From positions 1 through 61,860 of the forward strand of contig CAIRNJ010000072.1 in the NCBI GenBank assembly GCA_903879915.1: a DNA stretch of 61,860 nucleotides, read 5' to 3'. Shown in pieces: positions 1,447 through 61,860 of this stretch. A model generated the notes under the pieces. The model was not told where the DNA came from. It worked only from the letters and a program-made list of their open reading frames with translations, and did not search any database. The translations under genes were made by a program, and so were the position numbers. The DNA is from an uncultured Elusimicrobia bacterium. GTDB taxonomy: Bacteria > Elusimicrobiota > Elusimicrobia > Elusimicrobiales > UBA9959. How positions within the stretch are numbered: position 1 is the first letter of the stretch; each line of letters starts with the position of its first letter.

Positions 1447-1492
1447 ATTTTACCATGTCTCCTTTTCGGAGCCGGTCAAAGCCCTACACAAT

Positions 1493-2485
1493 TTAGTTCT
1501 CTAACTGTCTACCCGAAGGGGCGCACTCCACTTCCTGGTCCAGCATATCGATAACTTCAGTGTGTGGATGAGTATCCTTGGAACGTCCATGCCGTCCATT
1601 ATTGTGACTAATAATCGCAACCTCTGGGTTGATACTTTTAAGCACCTGGAGAGAAAGATTCATGCGACTTCCATGATGAGGAACTTTTAAATATTTTGCT
1701 GATATATCCACCTTCGAGGATATGAGACGGGCAAACACTGTCTCATCAATATCTCCAGTAAATAGCCACCGATTATTTTGTGGATGATTATAGATAAACG
1801 CAACACTTGACTGGTTTGAAGTTAATTCGATTTGCCTTTCGAGATAATAATTAATGCTCTCGCGAGGAACACCTTGAAGATATGTGCTCATTTTAATAAA
1901 AAACAGATGCACAAAGATTCTCGCGATACTACGATATTCCAAAGTCTGCTCAGATGTGTTTATGGGACTTTCATAATTAATGATTTCATCTTGCGGCAAG
2001 TCTATACCATAGTCTCTAAGAATATGTAAGGCACGTAGAATCGCCGCCGGAGAATCATCTTGAAACAAGTTACTAAAGCATTGGTATGGATTCTTGGGAG
2101 GATTAAGGACAGTAGTATGCTCTGGGCATAGAGAATCCCCCTCACCGACCAGTGTTGGATTTAGCTTATTTATACTGGCCCAATTCGGATTAGCGATGGA
2201 TATTCGAGTGTGCTTTGCGAGATAATAATTAATCCTGGTTATTTCCGGCAGATAGTATGGAATGAATAAACTTTTAACTTTTTTTTTCTTCAGAATAGCA
2301 GGGAGTCCGCCAATATGATCTTTATGTGAGTGAGTAAGCAGCACAAAAAGTTCATTCGGGATTTGTGCTGGAATTTTGTAGGAAGGGCCTGTATCGATTA
2401 ACAACGGGGAATCATCAAACGTACAACCAGAGTTAGGGCTAAGTAAAAAGCAATCCCCTTGTCCGACATTAAATACAGTCAACAT
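1493..2485 (-). CDS. MBL-fold hydrolase, ComEC-C-like, end cut by the IS
   Basis: 330 residues of the metallo-beta-lactamase superfamily. It begins with the FNVGQGD strand typical of the ComEC/Rec2 nuclease-like branch. Metal ligands are visible: THSHKDH (H52, H54, D56, H57), a later FTGDID aspartate, and PHHGS. Members of this branch hydrolyse phosphodiesters or similar bonds, but the substrate here is unknown. It has no membrane part, so it is a free cytoplasmic enzyme and not a DNA channel. The C-terminus after HPHTEVIDML is odd: the last residues (SGRQLEN) and the stop lie at the IS border, so a short natural tail was probably lost. It follows the nuclease gene by 39 bp and is presumably co-transcribed. 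No clear Shine-Dalgarno sequence precedes the ATG. Confidence 0.8.
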   Translation of the reverse strand: MLTVFNVGQGDCFLLSPNSGCTFDDSPLLIDTGPSYKIPAQIPNELFVLLTHSHKDHIGGLPAILKKKKVKSLFIPYYLPEITRINYYLAKHTRISIANPNWASINKLNPTLVGEGDSLCPEHTTVLNPPKNPYQCFSNLFQDDSPAAILRALHILRDYGIDLPQDEIINYESPINTSEQTLEYRSIARIFVHLFFIKMSTYLQGVPRESINYYLERQIELTSNQSSVAFIYNHPQNNRWLFTGDIDETVFARLISSKVDISAKYLKVPHHGSRMNLSLQVLKSINPEVAIISHNNGRHGRSKDTHPHTEVIDMLDQEVECAPSGRQLEN

Positions 2486-2524
2486 CGCAGATCCATTAGA
2501 CTATCTATTTTCAACAACATACCA

Positions 2525-3085
2525 TCAATTACCCATGCCTGTTATAAAGTTTGATTCCTCAGCAAAAGGGATATGCTCTATCGGCATATGTACAACAGTA
2601 AATTTAACTCTATCAAGCTCGACTATGTTATTATAAACTGCCTTGGTATTAACAACAATACTTTTGATTTCTCTCTTCGCAAACACAAGAAGAACATTAA
2701 CAGGAGTTATCTCCCCCAGTCTCTTGCGGATAAAACCTATGTTTTTTGCAAGGATAGACCCACTCGGGTGTTCTTTTTTCATAAATTTAACCACCTGCGC
2801 ATGGCGTCGGATTTGATTTGCGCCTAGACGGATTCGGCAGGTGTTTCTCTCATTTCTTTTTGCACTTAATGGCCACTTACTCTCGCCAAAATACGTTTTA
2901 CGCCCTATTTTGATTATAAAGTCGAATTCACCAATCCCGATATTTCTGCCAAAACTTGGACGATAGAAAATCTCAGTTGGTTCGGCAGCAGACTCGCCAA
3001 GATACCCAAGGAACTCAGACAGACCTTTAGTTAAAGCCCATAAAGTTAAACTGTCTTCTCCATATCCTAAAATAGAGTTAACCAT
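2525..3085 (-). CDS. Probable PD-(D/E)XK nuclease
   Basis: 186 residues with no membrane segment. The centre carries a restriction-endonuclease-like core: FDFII (D55), then a turn, then YFGESKW (E68, K70). This is the D...ExK pattern of PD-(D/E)XK enzymes. The N-terminus reads YGEDSLTLWAL, which could be a helical cap or target-binding part. The ATG at 3085 has a strong AAGGAG site that overlaps the stop of the MazG-like gene (TAAGGAG), indicating translational coupling. The neighbours, a nucleotide pyrophosphohydrolase and an MBL hydrolase, suggest a nucleic-acid or nucleotide-targeting cassette. The fold is inferred from one motif; specificity and function are unknown. Confidence 0.55.
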   Translation of the reverse strand: MVNSILGYGEDSLTLWALTKGLSEFLGYLGESAAEPTEIFYRPSFGRNIGIGEFDFIIKIGRKTYFGESKWPLSAKRNERNTCRIRLGANQIRRHAQVVKFMKKEHPSGSILAKNIGFIRKRLGEITPVNVLLVFAKREIKSIVVNTKAVYNNIVELDRVKFTVVHMPIEHIPFAEESNFITGMGN

Positions 3086-3092
3086 AATCTCC

Positions 3093-3437
3093 TTAGGTAT
3101 GACGGCCTTTGGCTTTCGATACGGGGTATTTTATGGCGTTCTTCTTGAGCTTTTTGTCTAGGGCTGCGAGCGGGTCTATCTTAAGGTCATAACTGAGCAG
3201 CAGCACCCAGTAGAGCACGTCGGCCAACTCTTCGGATACTTCGGTCTTGCTGGTCTTTATGTGCTTTTCAATTTCTTTGGGGGTTTTCCACTGGAAGTGT
3301 TCCAGCAGTTCGGCGGCTTCCAGGGCCAGGGAGATGGCTACGTCTTTGGGGTTATGGAACTGTTTCCAGTCGCGCGCGTCACGGAAAGTTATGATCTTCC
3401 TGGTCAAGGATTTAATAGTTGGAGTTGTGGTGTCCAT
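3093..3437 (-). CDS. MazG-like nucleotide pyrophosphohydrolase
   Basis: 114 residues, the length of the compact MazG-like (RS21-C6 / dCTPase) family. The all-alpha metal site is visible as E40xxE43 in LALEAAELLEHF and E70xxD73 in EELADVLYW. These enzymes hydrolyse (d)NTPs to NMP and pyrophosphate, for house-cleaning or to limit nucleotide pools. It is the first gene of a three-gene operon: its stop forms part of the ribosome site of the nuclease gene 7 bp on. The start ATG follows a purine-rich GGGGAA. Alone it would be a routine enzyme; coupling to a nuclease and an MBL hydrolase is the unusual part. Confidence 0.85.
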   Translation of the reverse strand: MDTTTPTIKSLTRKIITFRDARDWKQFHNPKDVAISLALEAAELLEHFQWKTPKEIEKHIKTSKTEVSEELADVLYWVLLLSYDLKIDPLAALDKKLKKNAIKYPVSKAKGRHT

Positions 3438-3500: not shown

Positions 3501-3671
3501 TTATATGTATTTTGCTTTGTTTAGATGGCAAAATCCCGGGAGTGATCCTTGGTGGCTCTTTGGTGTCCAACTTGGTGGCTTCTTGGTGTCCAATTTGGTG
3601 GCTAAAATAGGACAAAACAGGGCTAAATAGGTCAAAGTCGGCAAAATGAATATCAAGACAAAACCAAACAC
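3501..3671 (-). CDS. Possible small membrane peptide in repeat copy A
   Basis: A 56-codon frame starting at GTG. A hydrophobic stretch (FGFVLIFILPTLTYLALF) is followed by ATKLDTKK. The homologous frame in repeat copy B (5210-5404) aligns without gaps over about 31 residues (LAxKLDTKK is shared). I see no convincing ribosome site. Many differences between the copies change the amino acid, so conservation may simply reflect the DNA repeat. Reported because the same frame is open in both copies. Confidence 0.2.
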   Translation of the reverse strand: MFGFVLIFILPTLTYLALFCPILATKLDTKKPPSWTPKSHQGSLPGFCHLNKAKYI

Positions 3672-3800
3672 AACAAAGTGGCGGCTCTCATTGGGAGAAC
3701 TGGAACAAAGTGTGTATTGGGAATAGCGGCTTTTTCAGGGGCTTTTGAGGGGTTTAATTCGCTTACGAATTTGGTTCTATTAGGTTCTATTCGGTTTTAG
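3551..3800. repeat. Long direct repeat, copy A
   Basis: By eye it matches 5284-5524 at roughly 75-85% with few gaps. Shared blocks include TTGGTGTCCAA (twice in each copy, 23 bp apart here), TCTCATTGGGAGA, CGGCTTTTTCAG and GGCTTTTGAGGGGTTTA. The block TTCGCTTACGAATTTGG is also common to both. Copy A lies between the MazG-like operon and the 3' end of the ATPase gene, in the 584 bp without a supported gene (3438-4021). Relative to copy B it has about 10 extra bases near 3780 and is separated from its hairpin by about 77 bp. Confidence 0.8.
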
Positions 3801-4021: not shown

Positions 4022-5200
4022 CTAAGCGGATAACTTGCCAGCCAGGCGCAGCCCGAAGGTGCGCCAGTCAGCAACTTCTCCGGAAGTTCTTTTTTGACTT
4101 TCTTTGCCTGCGTAAACAAGCAGACTGTCTACCGACTTCTTCCCGGCAAGTTCCTTGAAGTATTTCAGACCTTTGAACTGCTCCTCATAAAGAGTGACAG
4201 AGGACTTTATTTCTATAGCGGTTATGCTCTGCCCGTTATCTACAAGGCAGTCCACTTCATGTCCCACATGATCTCTCCAGAAATACAGGTTGCTGCTCCG
4301 GCCGCTGCTGAAACGATTTTTAAGCAGTTCACCCAGCACCCAGGCCTCAAAAATATAGCCCCTCATTGGATGAACGGAAAGTTCCGCCGCCTTTTGTATG
4401 CCGAGCAGGTGGCAGAGCAGGCCTGTATCGTAAAAATACAGTTTCGGACTTTTCATCAGCCGTTTGCCCATGTTCTCGAAATGCGGCGGCAGCAAGTGCA
4501 CTATATAGCAAGTCTGGAGAAGCGAGAGCCAGGCCTTTGCTGTGCCGTGATTGATCCCGCAATCGTTACCGAGAGAGGACAGGTTTATAAGCTGCCCGCA
4601 GCGGGCCGCGCACATTTTAAGGAATACCTGGAATTTGTGTAGGTCAGTAACCTTGAGGATCTGCCGTATATCCCGCTCGACGTAAGTGGCGACATAGCCC
4701 GAAAAGAATTCCTCGGAGGTAAGCTTTTTATCATAAAGGCGCGGATAGCCTCCCTTAAACAGGTTCTCTTCCAGCTTAGGGGACAGCTTCCGCCCTGCGG
4801 CAAGTTCTCCGGAGGAAAATGGAAGAAGGTTCAAGAGCGCCACGCGGCCGGCCAGTGACTGGGAAACACTCTCCAGCAGCATGAGGTTATTCGAGCCGGT
4901 AAGAATATACATCCCGCTGCTGCCCGTTTCGTCCACAATAGTCTGAATATAGGACAAAAGCGAAGGCACCCGCTGAATTTCATCAAAGATGGCCGGGGCA
5001 GGATATTTGGCCAGAAATAAACGGGGGTCGGCCAAGGCGAACTCCCGCGTGTCGAGGTTCTCCAAAGACACATATTTATAAGAGGGAAACGCTGCGCGCA
5101 CAAGCGTAGTTTTTCCGGATTGTCTCGGGCCGGTAACGGCGATAACCGGGGATTTCCTGGCCATCGCTTTCAGCTTTACTTCCAGGGTGCGTTTGATCAT
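4022..5200 (-). CDS. AAA_14 / DUF4143 ATP-binding protein
   Basis: 392 residues, full length for this family. The N-terminal P-loop ATPase has Walker A GPRQSGKT (24-31), Walker B AIFDE (D73, E74), a sensor-like LTGSNN near 103 and the family signature YVERDIRQI. The C-terminal DUF4143 part ends with VDCLVDNG...AIEIKSS, a degenerate restriction-enzyme-like fold. These proteins are common, often horizontally spread, and of unknown function. The gene stands alone between two copies of a long direct repeat, one upstream (5284-5524) and one downstream (3551-3800), so gene and repeat may move as one unit. No strong ribosome site precedes the ATG. Confidence 0.88.
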   Translation of the reverse strand: MIKRTLEVKLKAMARKSPVIAVTGPRQSGKTTLVRAAFPSYKYVSLENLDTREFALADPRLFLAKYPAPAIFDEIQRVPSLLSYIQTIVDETGSSGMYILTGSNNLMLLESVSQSLAGRVALLNLLPFSSGELAAGRKLSPKLEENLFKGGYPRLYDKKLTSEEFFSGYVATYVERDIRQILKVTDLHKFQVFLKMCAARCGQLINLSSLGNDCGINHGTAKAWLSLLQTCYIVHLLPPHFENMGKRLMKSPKLYFYDTGLLCHLLGIQKAAELSVHPMRGYIFEAWVLGELLKNRFSSGRSSNLYFWRDHVGHEVDCLVDNGQSITAIEIKSSVTLYEEQFKGLKYFKELAGKKSVDSLLVYAGKESQKRTSGEVADWRTFGLRLAGKLSA

Positions 5201-5209
5201 GCATAAATA

Positions 5210-5404
5210 TTACAAATTGCGAATCTCTTTGGCAAATCGTAAGAATAATCCGCCATGAGCCGTGTGGTACGCGCGAGGGTATGGTGGCTTCTTGGTGTCC
5301 AACCTGGAGGCTTTTTTGGTGTCCAATTTGGCGGCTAAAGTAGCGCAAGATAGGGCTAAATACAACAAGATAAAAAAAATAAACATCAAGATAAAATCAA
5401 ACAC
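5210..5404 (-). CDS. Possible small membrane peptide in repeat copy B
   Basis: A 64-codon frame with a GTG start. It has one predicted transmembrane stretch (FDFILMFIFFILLYLALS), then KLDTKK twice, 24 bp apart at DNA level so that the frame is kept. It ends 10 bp before the ATPase start, so it could be a leader peptide of that gene. The counterpart in copy A shares the membrane stretch and one KLDTKK. No clear ribosome site; coding status is uncertain. Confidence 0.25.
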   Translation of the reverse strand: MFDFILMFIFFILLYLALSCATLAAKLDTKKASRLDTKKPPYPRAYHTAHGGLFLRFAKEIRNL

Positions 5405-5524
5405 AACAAAATGGCGGTTCTCATTGGGAGAAACAGAACAAAGTCATGGCTGGAAATAACGGCTTTTTCAGTGGCTTTTGAGGGGTTTATTTCGCTTACG
5501 AATTTGGTTCTATTCGGTTTTATT
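5284..5524. repeat. Long direct repeat, copy B
   Basis: Second copy of the repeat described at 3551-3800, same orientation. It occupies most of the 379 bp between the ATPase start and the end of the DUF1016-type gene (5201-5579). Here TTGGTGTCCAA recurs with a 24-bp period, against 23 in copy A. The copy runs almost directly into its hairpin at 5532. Apart from the possible leader peptide I see no gene in this stretch. Confidence 0.8.
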
Positions 5525-5531
5525 TGGTTTT

Positions 5532-5550
5532 ATTCGCCTCTTAGGCGAAT
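5532..5550. repeat. Hairpin B (8-bp perfect stem)
   Basis: ATTCGCCT, loop CTT, AGGCGAAT. It sits just downstream of the DUF1016-type gene. Compared with hairpin A, one base pair has changed on both sides, which keeps the stem intact. Confidence 0.65.
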
Positions 5551-5579: not shown

Positions 5580-6656
5580 TCAATTAATGACCAGATACCT
5601 ACCCCGTGTTTCTTTCGCGCCTGACGCGCCGCCGCTGCCGAAGCCTTCTTCCAGCAGCAGGGAGACCTGGGCCGGGGACGGCAGTTCTTTCTTTAAGTTA
5701 TCCGGCAGCGTTTTGAATACTTTATAGGTAGAAACGCCTATTGGCTTTTTAGATTCGCGCAGGGAATACTCAACGATCATTCTTTTCTTGCTCCTGCAGA
5801 TAACTATCCCAATGGACGGATTTTCCTCCGGGGTTTTAACAAGGTCGTCCAGCGCGGCCAGGTAGAACTGCATCTTGCCGATGTATTCCGGCATGAACTC
5901 GCCCACTTTAAGCTCAACCGCAACAAGACACTTTAAATGTCGGTGGTACAGGAGGATATCAATGAAGTATTCCTGTCCGTCCACCTCAAGCCGGTACTGG
6001 CTGCCGGCAAAAGTAAAAACCCCGCCCATTTCTGTCAGGAACCTGTTCACTTTTGAGATAACGGCGCGCTCCAATTCTTTTTCACTATGCTCTTCACCCA
6101 GTTCCATTAAATCAAAACTGTATTCATCCTTTATAGCCAGCTTGGCCTGGCTGCGCACTTTTTCCGGCACAGTGGAATCAAAATTGATCTGGTTGTTTAG
6201 ATATTTGTGGCAGGCGCCTGTGTCTATATTGAGAATAAGCACAGCTTTTGTCCATCCGTATTTGCGTGTAGCACGCAGATAAAATTCGCGCTCAAGATCG
6301 TCCTTGCATTTTTCAAGGATCAGTATATTTTGAGTCCAGGCTATTTCTCGCACCAATGGTGCGAGTTTTTCCTTTTTTGAATAAATTGCATATAAAACCC
6401 TCATTCTCCAAAGGTTGGAAACTGAAAATCCTCGAACACCCGGGAATTCTCTTCGCAGATCTACGGAGAGTTGTTCTACAACAGCCTTTCCCCATGTATC
6501 GCCCTCCTGTCGTGAAAGTATCATTCGACCAATATCCCAGTACAAACTAACCACTGTTGTGTTAGCGGCCTTAAGCGCAACGTACTGCGCCTCGCGCACG
6601 CGTTGCTTGATATCCGCCAGTAATATACCGTAACCAGGAACAATTTCTTTAGCCAT
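5580..6656 (-). CDS. DUF1016 / YhcG-type PDDEXK nuclease-domain protein
   Basis: 358 residues from the chosen start. The N-terminal DUF1016 region (LYWDIGRMI, WGKAVVEQLS, GFSVSNLWRMR) is followed by a C-terminal nuclease-like fold with YFIDILLYHR and CLVAVELK, the D...ExK core. The family, typified by YhcG, is frequent near restriction-modification genes and in mobile regions; its role is not established. I chose ATG 6656 over the frame's upstream codon at 6701 because AAGGGGGG sits three bases before it. The 99-residue gene upstream may be its partner. Repeat copy B and its hairpin follow it. Confidence 0.9.
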   Translation of the reverse strand: MAKEIVPGYGILLADIKQRVREAQYVALKAANTTVVSLYWDIGRMILSRQEGDTWGKAVVEQLSVDLRREFPGVRGFSVSNLWRMRVLYAIYSKKEKLAPLVREIAWTQNILILEKCKDDLEREFYLRATRKYGWTKAVLILNIDTGACHKYLNNQINFDSTVPEKVRSQAKLAIKDEYSFDLMELGEEHSEKELERAVISKVNRFLTEMGGVFTFAGSQYRLEVDGQEYFIDILLYHRHLKCLVAVELKVGEFMPEYIGKMQFYLAALDDLVKTPEENPSIGIVICRSKKRMIVEYSLRESKKPIGVSTYKVFKTLPDNLKKELPSPAQVSLLLEEGFGSGGASGAKETRGRYLVIN

Positions 6657-6764
6657 AATCCCCCCTTGCCGTAGAAATAGCATAGCAGACCAACCCGTCA
6701 ATGGTCTGTCGGGATGATTTAAGTAATTTGTGAATTTAAAACACGAACAGGAACGCCGGGAAGA

Positions 6765-60032: not shown

Positions 60033-61860
60033 TTAATTAGTAACCCAGGCGCCGTCGCCGTAGAAGATCATCCACTGCGATCCAGAAACAACGCGGAGAG
60101 TAATAGTAGCAATAGCCGGAGCAATAGCATTGTTATAAATATTACCGCCGGAAGTGGAGTCAGCTATTTTATCACCATCCGCCGCATGAATTATCATCGG
60201 ACTCCTGCCAAGCTTGACAAAGATGAATTGCCCGCCCCAATCATCATCGTTGATTGCCGGAAGATTGTATGTAGTAGAATCGTTGTCATCCCGGGTAGAC
60301 ACATAGGTTTCCCCAAAAGTGAGAGTGCTGAGGGTAATTACGGCGGTAGTTCCCATCTGTGTGGTACTGAACTTACCCACAGGAGTGATAAGCCCGGAGC
60401 CGTCACCGACGAATCTACCGGAAAATGTTTTCGCCGTCATAATGCCGGTGGCGGACATAGTAGCCACTGTGATACCGCTGGAATTGCGCCAGAGCTGGGC
60501 CATATCGGCGTCGCTGTTCCCCCCCGCAGTAACGTCCAACCTACCGTGCGGCGTAGTTGTGCCGATCCCGATGTCGCCGTTGGCCAACACGGTCATGGTG
60601 CCGCCGCCGACCTGGAACAGCCCTGTCGGATCAATAATCCCGACGCCGACATTACCGGAGCCCAGCACGGTCAGGCTTCCGCCGCCGACCTGGAACAATC
60701 CTGTTGGATCTATCGTCCCGACGCCCACTTTGCCGGAACCCAGCACGGTCAGACTTCCGCCACCGACCTGGAACAATCCTGTTGGATCTATCGTCCCGAC
60801 ACCGACATTACCGGAACCCAGCACGGTCAGGCTTCCGCCGCCGACCTGGAACAGCCCTGTCGGATCGATCGTACCTATACCAACGTTGCCTCCGGGTTTG
60901 ATCACGAAGCGCTGGTTCCAGTTGCTGCTATCAAATTCCTCTATCACAAAATTATTACTAACAGCGCCGGTCTCCTTTCTTCTGTGCATGACCGTCCAAT
61001 ACTTACTCGAGTTCAAATCTGTCAGCTTAAGTGCGGCAAAATTGGAGTATGACTCATTCGCAGTAGTGCCAGAAAGCTCCAAATATGCTCCGGGATCTAT
61101 GATATTGGTTATTCTCACGCTCCCGATCACATCCAATTGCGTTACCGGCGCCGAAGTCCCGATGCCCACTTTGCCTTTTGTTGAAACAAATACAGTATTT
61201 GCTCCGCCAGCGGTATCCACACTGAAAACATTAGTGTCGGTGCTACTTACGCTCACAATATTTAATTTCCCTGTTGGGGATGTAGTCCCAATGCCGACTT
61301 TACTTCCTGCCATGGTAAAGGCGGGACCACCAATCGAGAAGTTGTTATTCTGGAACGTAGCGCTTGAGGCGAATGTCTGCGGAACGGTGAAAGTCTGCGT
61401 TGAATCCAGTTTCGCAATGTTCACAGACAATGCCGTATCGGCAACTTTACCGGAAGCGGATATCGTGGACAGCTTACTGTCCGGTATGGAACCAAGCAGT
61501 TTGTCGCTAGTCACGGCCAAATCACGTATAGCCGCGGGATAAACTGCGTCAACCGCTACTGAAGAAGCGATAATATTGGACGGCAGATTTCCACCGGATA
61601 TCTGCGTGGTGGTTATGTTGCCGGTCAGGTTTGAAGCGATGCCAGCGTTATCGGCGTACATCGATGACGATACTTTTACATCGTTCAGGTAGCTGCCGGC
61701 TTTGATCGCCTGGGCCACAACATTGACAGGAAGATTGCCGGCGGATATCTGCGTGGTGGCTATGCTGCCGGTTAAGTTCGCTGCCGTGACTGCGTTAGTA
61801 GCCGTGGCCGCATTGCCAGCATTATCGGCGTATATCGCCGATGATACTTTAACATCGTTC
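60033..61860 (-). CDS. Large secreted fibre-like protein (5' end beyond window)
   Basis: The frame is open from the stop at 60033 to the window edge, so at least 609 residues are visible and the start is missing. An ATG-like GTG at 61718 is internal. The N-terminal part repeats units such as YLNDVKVSSxxYADNAG and LTGxIxTTQISxGNLP. The middle contains GIGTTSPTGKLNIVS-type units, then four 26-residue repeats (60583-60894). The C-terminus (about 60033-60400) is a smaller beta-rich domain with GGQFIFVKLGRS. This is the style of trimeric tail-fibre or surface-adhesin proteins. No S74 peptidase chaperone is seen. Confidence 0.8.
   Translation of the reverse strand, partial: NDVKVSSAIYADNAGNAATATNAVTAANLTGSIATTQISAGNLPVNVVAQAIKAGSYLNDVKVSSSMYADNAGIASNLTGNITTTQISGGNLPSNIIASSVAVDAVYPAAIRDLAVTSDKLLGSIPDSKLSTISASGKVADTALSVNIAKLDSTQTFTVPQTFASSATFQNNNFSIGGPAFTMAGSKVGIGTTSPTGKLNIVSVSSTDTNVFSVDTAGGANTVFVSTKGKVGIGTSAPVTQLDVIGSVRITNIIDPGAYLELSGTTANESYSNFAALKLTDLNSSKYWTVMHRRKETGAVSNNFVIEEFDSSNWNQRFVIKPGGNVGIGTIDPTGLFQVGGGSLTVLGSGNVGVGTIDPTGLFQVGGGSLTVLGSGKVGVGTIDPTGLFQVGGGSLTVLGSGNVGVGIIDPTGLFQVGGGTMTVLANGDIGIGTTTPHGRLDVTAGGNSDADMAQLWRNSSGITVATMSATGIMTAKTFSGRFVGDGSGLITPVGKFSTTQMGTTAVITLSTLTFGETYVSTRDDNDSTTYNLPAINDDDWGGQFIFVKLGRSPMIIHAADGDKIADSTSGGNIYNNAIAPAIATITLRVVSGSQWMIFYGDGAWVTN
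60583..60894 (-). repeat. Four tandem 78-bp repeats in the fibre gene
   Basis: Units at 60583-60660, 60661-60738, 60739-60816 and 60817-60894, each 78 bp (26 residues, TIDPTGLFQVGGGSLTVLGS core). The inner units are nearly identical, differing mainly at synonymous positions; the edge units diverge. The exact period keeps the frame, so copy number can change by slippage or recombination without disrupting the protein. Confidence 0.92.

What the first reader, a model, noticed from the sequence alone, without database searches (positions are those of the whole stretch)
1493..3437. MazG-like, PD-(D/E)XK nuclease and MBL hydrolase as one coupled operon
Three cytoplasmic enzymes that could act on nucleotides or nucleic acids lie in one tight leftward operon in AT-rich accessory DNA. 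The MazG-like stop forms part of the nuclease ribosome site, and the MBL gene follows 39 bp later. I know of no described system with this trio. A nucleotide-depleting and nucleic-acid-cutting defence cassette is a reasonable inference.
Basis: partly seen in the sequence, partly recalled or inferred. Interest (0 to 1): 0.62.

Follow-up and report, generated by a model that had tools for sequence, protein, structure and literature searches.

The report
Patchwork defence-gene junction, not one operon
Three enzyme genes that look like one bacterial virus-defence operon are most likely a recent patchwork: a resident nucleotide-enzyme gene lost its last codons where an imported DNA-cutting-enzyme gene and a damaged hydrolase gene were joined on, so the trio is probably not a conserved system.

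Summary
The "trio" is not a conserved system. The MazG-like gene is widespread in this Elusimicrobiota genus (24 of 31 relatives). The 186-aa protein has one relative in 341 phylum genomes, alone there. No close MBL relative was found.

MazG-like is GC-rich at third positions (0.65), the other two AT-rich (0.35). Aligned MazG relatives continue with KYxxL; here the protein stops at HT, and DNA similarity ends at the same base. The stop-in-Shine-Dalgarno overlap is therefore a junction scar.

In relatives the MazG-like gene of this clade is often coupled instead to a Schlafen-group-3 helicase (PF09848), beside probable restriction genes. Other members carry HNH or DUF3800 genes. So this looks like partner exchange behind a defence-island mazG.

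The 186-aa protein carries an intact D-x12-ExK motif but matches no family, and its model failed. The MBL is ComEC-like, with a ~90-residue insertion like that of a Lamassu MBL. It lacks its last ~25 residues and any downstream partner; an IS3-family element sits at its stop.

Defence function is plausible for each gene; a joint three-enzyme mechanism is not supported. The MazG–SLFN-helicase pair is the more interesting lead.

The parts
3093..3437 (-). MazG-like nucleotide pyrophosphohydrolase (PF12643), resident gene, missing its last ~6 codons
   Evidence: PF12643 E 5.9e-16; homologs in 62/341 phylum genomes; aligned relatives continue past HT
3086..3098 (-). junction: mazG homology ends after ...CGTCATACC; new TAA stop plus GGAG Shine-Dalgarno of the nuclease
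   Evidence: DNA alignment with nine clade members, identity collapses at this base
2525..3085 (-). 186-aa predicted PD-(D/E)XK nuclease, orphan family (E10, D55, E68-x-K70, Q91)
   Evidence: motif conserved in the only relative; no library match; AF2 model unreliable, pLDDT 34
1493..2485 (-). cytoplasmic ComEC-type MBL hydrolase with ~90-residue insertion between HSHKDH and PHHGS; lacks the final ~25 residues
227..265 (+). left arm of an imperfect palindrome whose other arm is the 3' end of the MBL gene
   Evidence: I1; joined arms fold with z -5.4
1492..1530 (-). right arm of the palindrome, coding the last MBL codons; stop codon lies in the loop
266..1491 (-). IS3-family insertion element (orfA 1075-1446, orfB 287-1075), ends TTGTGTAGGGCTT, TTT target duplication
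   Evidence: PF01527, PF00665 and PF13276; ends; single copy in genome
3438..3560 (-). mazG upstream region, partly shared with relatives' mazG genes
   Evidence: alignment of ATATAGAAT / AAATTGCCAG region with L038, L039, L043

Best explanation
The three genes are a chimeric junction in a defence island. A resident mazG-like gene, which in its clade is often the first gene of a defence operon (usual partner: Schlafen-group-3 helicase), was joined at its 3' end to an imported AT-rich block carrying a small PD-(D/E)XK nuclease and a ComEC-type MBL hydrolase. The join cost mazG its last ~6 codons and placed its new stop in the nuclease ribosome site, so nuclease and MBL now ride on the mazG promoter (inferred). 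The most likely roles are separate: MazG-like hydrolyses NTPs/dNTPs; the nuclease cuts nucleic acid, probably as a restriction-type or abortive effector; the MBL is a pro-nuclease-like DNase whose active site is covered by an insertion, but it has lost its C-terminal strands and has no visible downstream activating partner, so it is probably non-functional or decaying. Shown: gene order, junction, family identities, missing ends, partner variability. Inferred: activities, transcription from the mazG promoter, defence role.
For: MazG is genus-widespread while the nuclease is nearly unique. GC3 is 0.65 for mazG and 0.35/0.36 for nuclease/MBL. Every one of the 28 aligned MazG relatives extends beyond the point (KGRHT) where the window protein stops, and DNA identity ends there. 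Seven phylum loci and one Priestia plasmid have MazG next to or near a PF09848 helicase; other members of the same clade have HNH_2 or DUF3800 genes instead, several with remnants of the helicase N-terminus (read by eye). The nuclease relative stands alone. The MBL lacks the terminal YRTD..G.I..DG region seen in most of 29 homologs, the rest keeping an equivalent C-terminal extension, and has 61 residues after HHGS against 87 in a Lamassu MBL. HxHxDH-to-HHGS spacing is 218 against 121-140 in 29 ordinary relatives and 205 in the Lamassu MBL.
Against: Tight spacing and a good ribosome site are also what a functional operon would show, and a recent join can be selected for. Only one nuclease relative is known, so a conserved nuclease+MBL pair in unsampled lineages cannot be excluded. 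The MazG island clade has modest support (0.69). The window's mazG could have been shortened by mutation followed by divergence rather than by a join.
Confidence: 0.7

Rival explanations
1. The three genes form one functional defence cassette: MazG depletes nucleotides, the PD-(D/E)XK enzyme and the MBL cut nucleic acid, all translated from one message.
For: Tight overlap and 39-bp gap; intact PD-(D/E)XK motif; MBL active-site motifs HSHKDH, GD and PHHGS intact; defence-candidate genes nearby: PDC-S01 4022-5200 and PDC-S02 5580-6701. On a Priestia plasmid a MazG-SLFN pair, a restriction endonuclease and a Lamassu MBL lie within 10 kb, though in separate units.
Against: No other occurrence of the trio; different composition of mazG; shortened mazG and MBL ends; nuclease relative solitary.
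Confidence: 0.12
2. Nuclease and MBL are a two-gene remnant of a larger imported system of the gated MBL pro-nuclease type (as in Lamassu, Avs1, Hachiman, DRT), whose downstream protease-fused sensor was lost; mazG is only a neighbour. (Compatible with the best explanation; it adds an origin for the imported block.)
For: Same base composition for the two genes; MBL insertion of the size found in a Lamassu MBL; PMC12799240 describes MBL pro-nucleases sitting immediately upstream of a protease fusion, with blocking insertions; the MBL 3' end and everything after it are missing here.
Against: LmuA and Avs1a profiles score the window MBL no better than ordinary MBLs (LmuA 78 against 68-86 bits) while the Lamassu MBL scores 375. 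No protease gene in the 265 bp beyond the IS; trypsin-like genes of the genome lie on other contigs. The systems described there do not have this small nuclease upstream.
Confidence: 0.3
3. Chance neighbours: mazG, nuclease and MBL arrived separately in a degenerating accessory region and have no joint role.
For: IS insertion, hairpin, missing gene ends and a duplicated 220-nt repeat nearby; the relative's nuclease is alone.
Against: Nuclease and MBL share composition and orientation and the nuclease keeps all catalytic residues, so at least the nuclease seems maintained until recently.
Confidence: 0.25

Closest known systems
MazG-like family PF12643 / nucleotide pyrophosphohydrolase beside SLFN-g3 helicase (PF09848, formerly DUF2075)
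   Same: The window MazG belongs to the clade often coupled to this helicase in Elusimicrobiota; the pair also occurs on a Priestia plasmid
   Different: Here the helicase is absent and mazG is cut short
Gated MBL pro-nucleases of Lamassu / Avs1 / Hachiman / DRT (PMC12799240)
   Same: ComEC-type MBL, no apparent signal peptide, large insertion between HxHxDH and HHGS
   Different: Family profiles do not single it out, no protease partner, C-terminus missing, small nuclease upstream
ComEC/Rec2 C-terminal MBL nuclease domain
   Same: Best PDB matches (9ic4, 30bt, 9vc6) and shared PHHGS block
   Different: Stand-alone and carries a ~90-residue insertion
PD-(D/E)XK nuclease superfamily
   Same: E...D-x12-E-x-K...Q signature and a compatible strand-strand-helix order in a low-confidence model
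   Different: No detectable sequence match to any described family; only two members known

Membership tests
PD-(D/E)XK nuclease superfamily | D-(x)n-(E/D)-x-K active site, conserved among relatives | tested here: met
   D55-x12-E68-x-K70 with E10 and Q91 identical in both members
PD-(D/E)XK nuclease superfamily | restriction-endonuclease-like fold | tested here: inconclusive
   AF2 pLDDT 34, secondary structure compatible only
PD-(D/E)XK nuclease superfamily | profile match to a described family | tested here: not met
   none in Pfam, PADLOC, NCBIfam, PDB
MazG-like PF12643 | profile match above cut-off | tested here: met
   58.9 bits, cut-off 27
Lamassu/Avs1/Hachiman MBL pro-nuclease | specific profile score above ordinary ComEC-like MBLs | tested here: not met
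   LmuA 78 bits against 68-86 for four control MBLs and 375 for the Lamassu MBL
Lamassu/Avs1/Hachiman MBL pro-nuclease | active-site-covering insertion(s) | tested here: met
   extra length only: spacing 218 against 121-140 (n=29) and 205 in the Lamassu MBL; that it covers the site, and the cleavage isoleucines, could not be tested
Lamassu/Avs1/Hachiman MBL pro-nuclease | protease-fused partner gene directly downstream | tested here: not met
   IS then 265 bp without an ORF of that kind, then contig end; trypsin-like genes only on other contigs
Conserved MazG-nuclease-MBL cassette | genes adjacent in other genomes | tested here: not met
   341 phylum genomes plus a pattern scan of 84,980 species genomes
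Conserved MazG-nuclease-MBL cassette | phage protection by the intact set | not testable with these tools
   needs experiment

The most novel reading that the evidence does not exclude
The MazG-like gene is the fixed first gene of an exchangeable two-part defence module: MazG plus a swappable nucleic-acid-acting partner (usually an SLFN-g3 helicase, sometimes with GIY-YIG; here a new PD-(D/E)XK family). The 3' end of mazG would be the exchange point, and the window a fresh swap bringing in an undescribed nuclease family with a gated MBL.
Probability: 0.2. Interest if true: 0.6.

Novelty: new variant of a known kind. Interest (0 to 1): 0.35.

Why it matters
It shows that a textbook sign of operon coupling (stop codon inside the next gene's ribosome site) can be a recombination scar, and it points to a MazG-like plus SLFN-g3 helicase pair found in two phyla beside probable restriction genes, for which no joint description was found in the searched library.

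Tried and rejected
A conserved trio: rejected by genome searches. MBL as a Lamassu/Avs1 member by profile: control MBLs scored equally. IS insertion as the cause of the shortened MBL: the TAA is present on the flank side and survives in the empty site, so the loss predates or is independent of the IS. Palindrome at the MBL 3' end as a dispersed repeat: its core occurs once in the genome; an integron attC reading was not supported by core-site motifs (inspection only). Structure models of nuclease and MBL were both too poor for fold searches. Viral, phage and plasmid searches gave no nuclease relative. No Rfam match near the locus. Papers on MazG with DUF2075 or nucleotide pyrophosphohydrolase with DUF2075: none held.

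Full report
What is there. The window is a whole contig (C72) of an Elusimicrobiota genome of 3.37 Mb. On the minus strand, MazG-like (3437-3093), a 186-aa protein (3085-2525) and an MBL hydrolase (2485-1493) follow one another, with gaps of 7 and 39 bp. An IS3-family element (266-1491) lies against the MBL stop codon, with TTT repeated on both sides.

Who the genes are. MazG-like matches PF12643. The 186-aa protein matches nothing, but one relative at 49% identity exists in another genus of the same family. Between the two, E10, D55, E68-x-K70 and Q91 are all identical, with the spacing of PD-(D/E)XK active sites. The AF2 model has pLDDT 34 and proves nothing; its strand-strand-helix order is merely compatible. 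The MBL starts directly at the first strand (no apparent signal peptide, by inspection), while many of its relatives in the phylum begin with hydrophobic, secretion-like leaders (inspection). Its nearest solved structures are ComEC MBL domains.

Is it one system? Three lines say no. (1) Distribution: MazG-like was found in 62 of 341 phylum genomes, 24 of the 31 same-genus relatives, 23 of these at 67-87% identity; the nuclease in 2 of 341, the window's own genome included; a pattern scan of 84,980 species genomes found only that same relative; plasmids, phages and viral contigs gave none. Where the nuclease occurs again it has a DUF5677 gene upstream and a convergent gene downstream, no MazG or MBL on that 11-kb contig, and that genome had no MazG-like match. 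MBL hits elsewhere are weak, mostly C-terminal, and not next to MazG. (2) Composition: GC3 is 0.65 for mazG, 0.35 for the nuclease and 0.36 for the MBL; the nuclease relative is also AT-rich, GC3 0.31. (3) Junction: relatives end ...KGRHTKYxxL(K) or close variants; the window ends KGRHT. In the DNA alignment identity with nine clade members is high up to CATACC and then collapses. So the foreign block begins at the base where mazG ends, and the stop/Shine-Dalgarno overlap is the seam.

What mazG normally sits beside. In the MazG subclade holding the window copy (10 sequences, support 0.69), a Schlafen-group-3 helicase (PF09848) or a piece of it follows within 1.5 kb in five of the nine other members (L037, L039-L042) and in none of fifteen other same-genus loci (L046-L059, L061; Fisher p 0.003; the sequences are related, so this is descriptive). 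Two further loci (L060 with a GIY-YIG domain, and L064) have the pair. Coupling is tight: overlaps of 4 or 1 bases or a gap of 2 in five loci. On a Priestia plasmid MazG lies between an MrcB_N gene and a PF09848 helicase, next to N-6 methylase and S-subunit genes. In L075 and L079 the operon appears to continue into restriction genes (read from ORF sequences only; HNH_2 in L079). In L043 and L044, HNH_2 or DUF3800 genes follow instead, and the DNA after mazG still reads like the helicase N-terminus in L043 and L045 (VIVY/MIVY...RFQQDV, by eye). The window fits this pattern as one more partner exchange.

State of the MBL. Among 29 relatives most end with a (Y/F)RTD..G.I..DG block and the others with an equivalent extension; the window MBL stops soon after HPHTEVIDMLDQE. 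It has 61 residues after HHGS against 87 in a Lamassu MBL. Its last codons form one arm of a palindrome whose other arm lies beyond the IS; the joined arms fold far better than shuffles (z -5.4). The stop codon is present on the flank, so the IS did not create it. Between HSHKDH and PHHGS the protein has 218 residues, against 121-140 in 29 ordinary relatives and 205 in the Lamassu-type MBL of the Priestia plasmid, which sits in an MBL / ABC-3C / middle component / AAA set. PMC12799240 reports that such defence MBLs are pro-nucleases gated by insertions and activated by a protease fused to the next gene. The size of the insertion is therefore suggestive. But LmuA and Avs1a profile scores do not separate the window MBL from ordinary MBLs (LmuA 78 against 68-86 bits; Lamassu-type MBL 375), and there is no protease next door. 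It may work like one; it is not shown to be one.

Mechanism, most likely. MazG-like would hydrolyse (d)NTPs; the nuclease would cut nucleic acid; the MBL, if it folds without its last strands, would be a latent DNase lacking its activator. Transcription of nuclease and MBL from the mazG promoter is inferred from gene order and from partly conserved upstream sequence. No result shows cooperation between the three.

Limits. One nuclease relative is too few for a fold or for neighbourhood statistics. Absence from other phyla rests on pattern-based scans that find close relatives only. The contig ends 265 bp beyond the IS. The literature library lacks most subscription papers, so the MazG-SLFN pair may be described elsewhere; DefensePredictor (PMC13092281) lists MazG among predicted defence domains.

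Noticed in passing
L042, L041, L064, L039, L060, L040, L073; L071 (Priestia plasmid): MazG-like gene coupled to or closely followed by a Schlafen-group-3 (PF09848) helicase, sometimes GIY-YIG-fused, beside probable type I restriction genes; no joint description found in the searched papers.
   Followed up: partly
3580-3799 and 5313-5532: A 220-nt direct repeat (83% identical) with short TTGGTGTCCAA-type tandem units flanks the AAA_14/DUF4143 gene 4022-5200; one more copy occurs in a same-genus genome (G002 C99).
   Followed up: partly
227-265 and 1492-1530: Strong imperfect palindrome at the MBL 3' end with the IS3-family element inserted in its loop; suggests hairpin-targeted insertion.
   Followed up: partly
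5580-6701: DUF1016/YhcG-type PD-(D/E)XK nuclease (PDC-S02), intact, next to a DUF4143 ATPase (PDC-S01) at 4022-5200.
   Followed up: no
60033-61859: AT-richer contig end with an open, repetitive surface-type protein containing repeated GNVGVGTIDPTGLFQVGGGSLTVLGSG units.
   Followed up: no
L083: In a very AT-rich relative (28% GC) the MazG-like gene is followed 2 bp later by a GIY-YIG plus SLFN-g3 helicase fusion.
   Followed up: no
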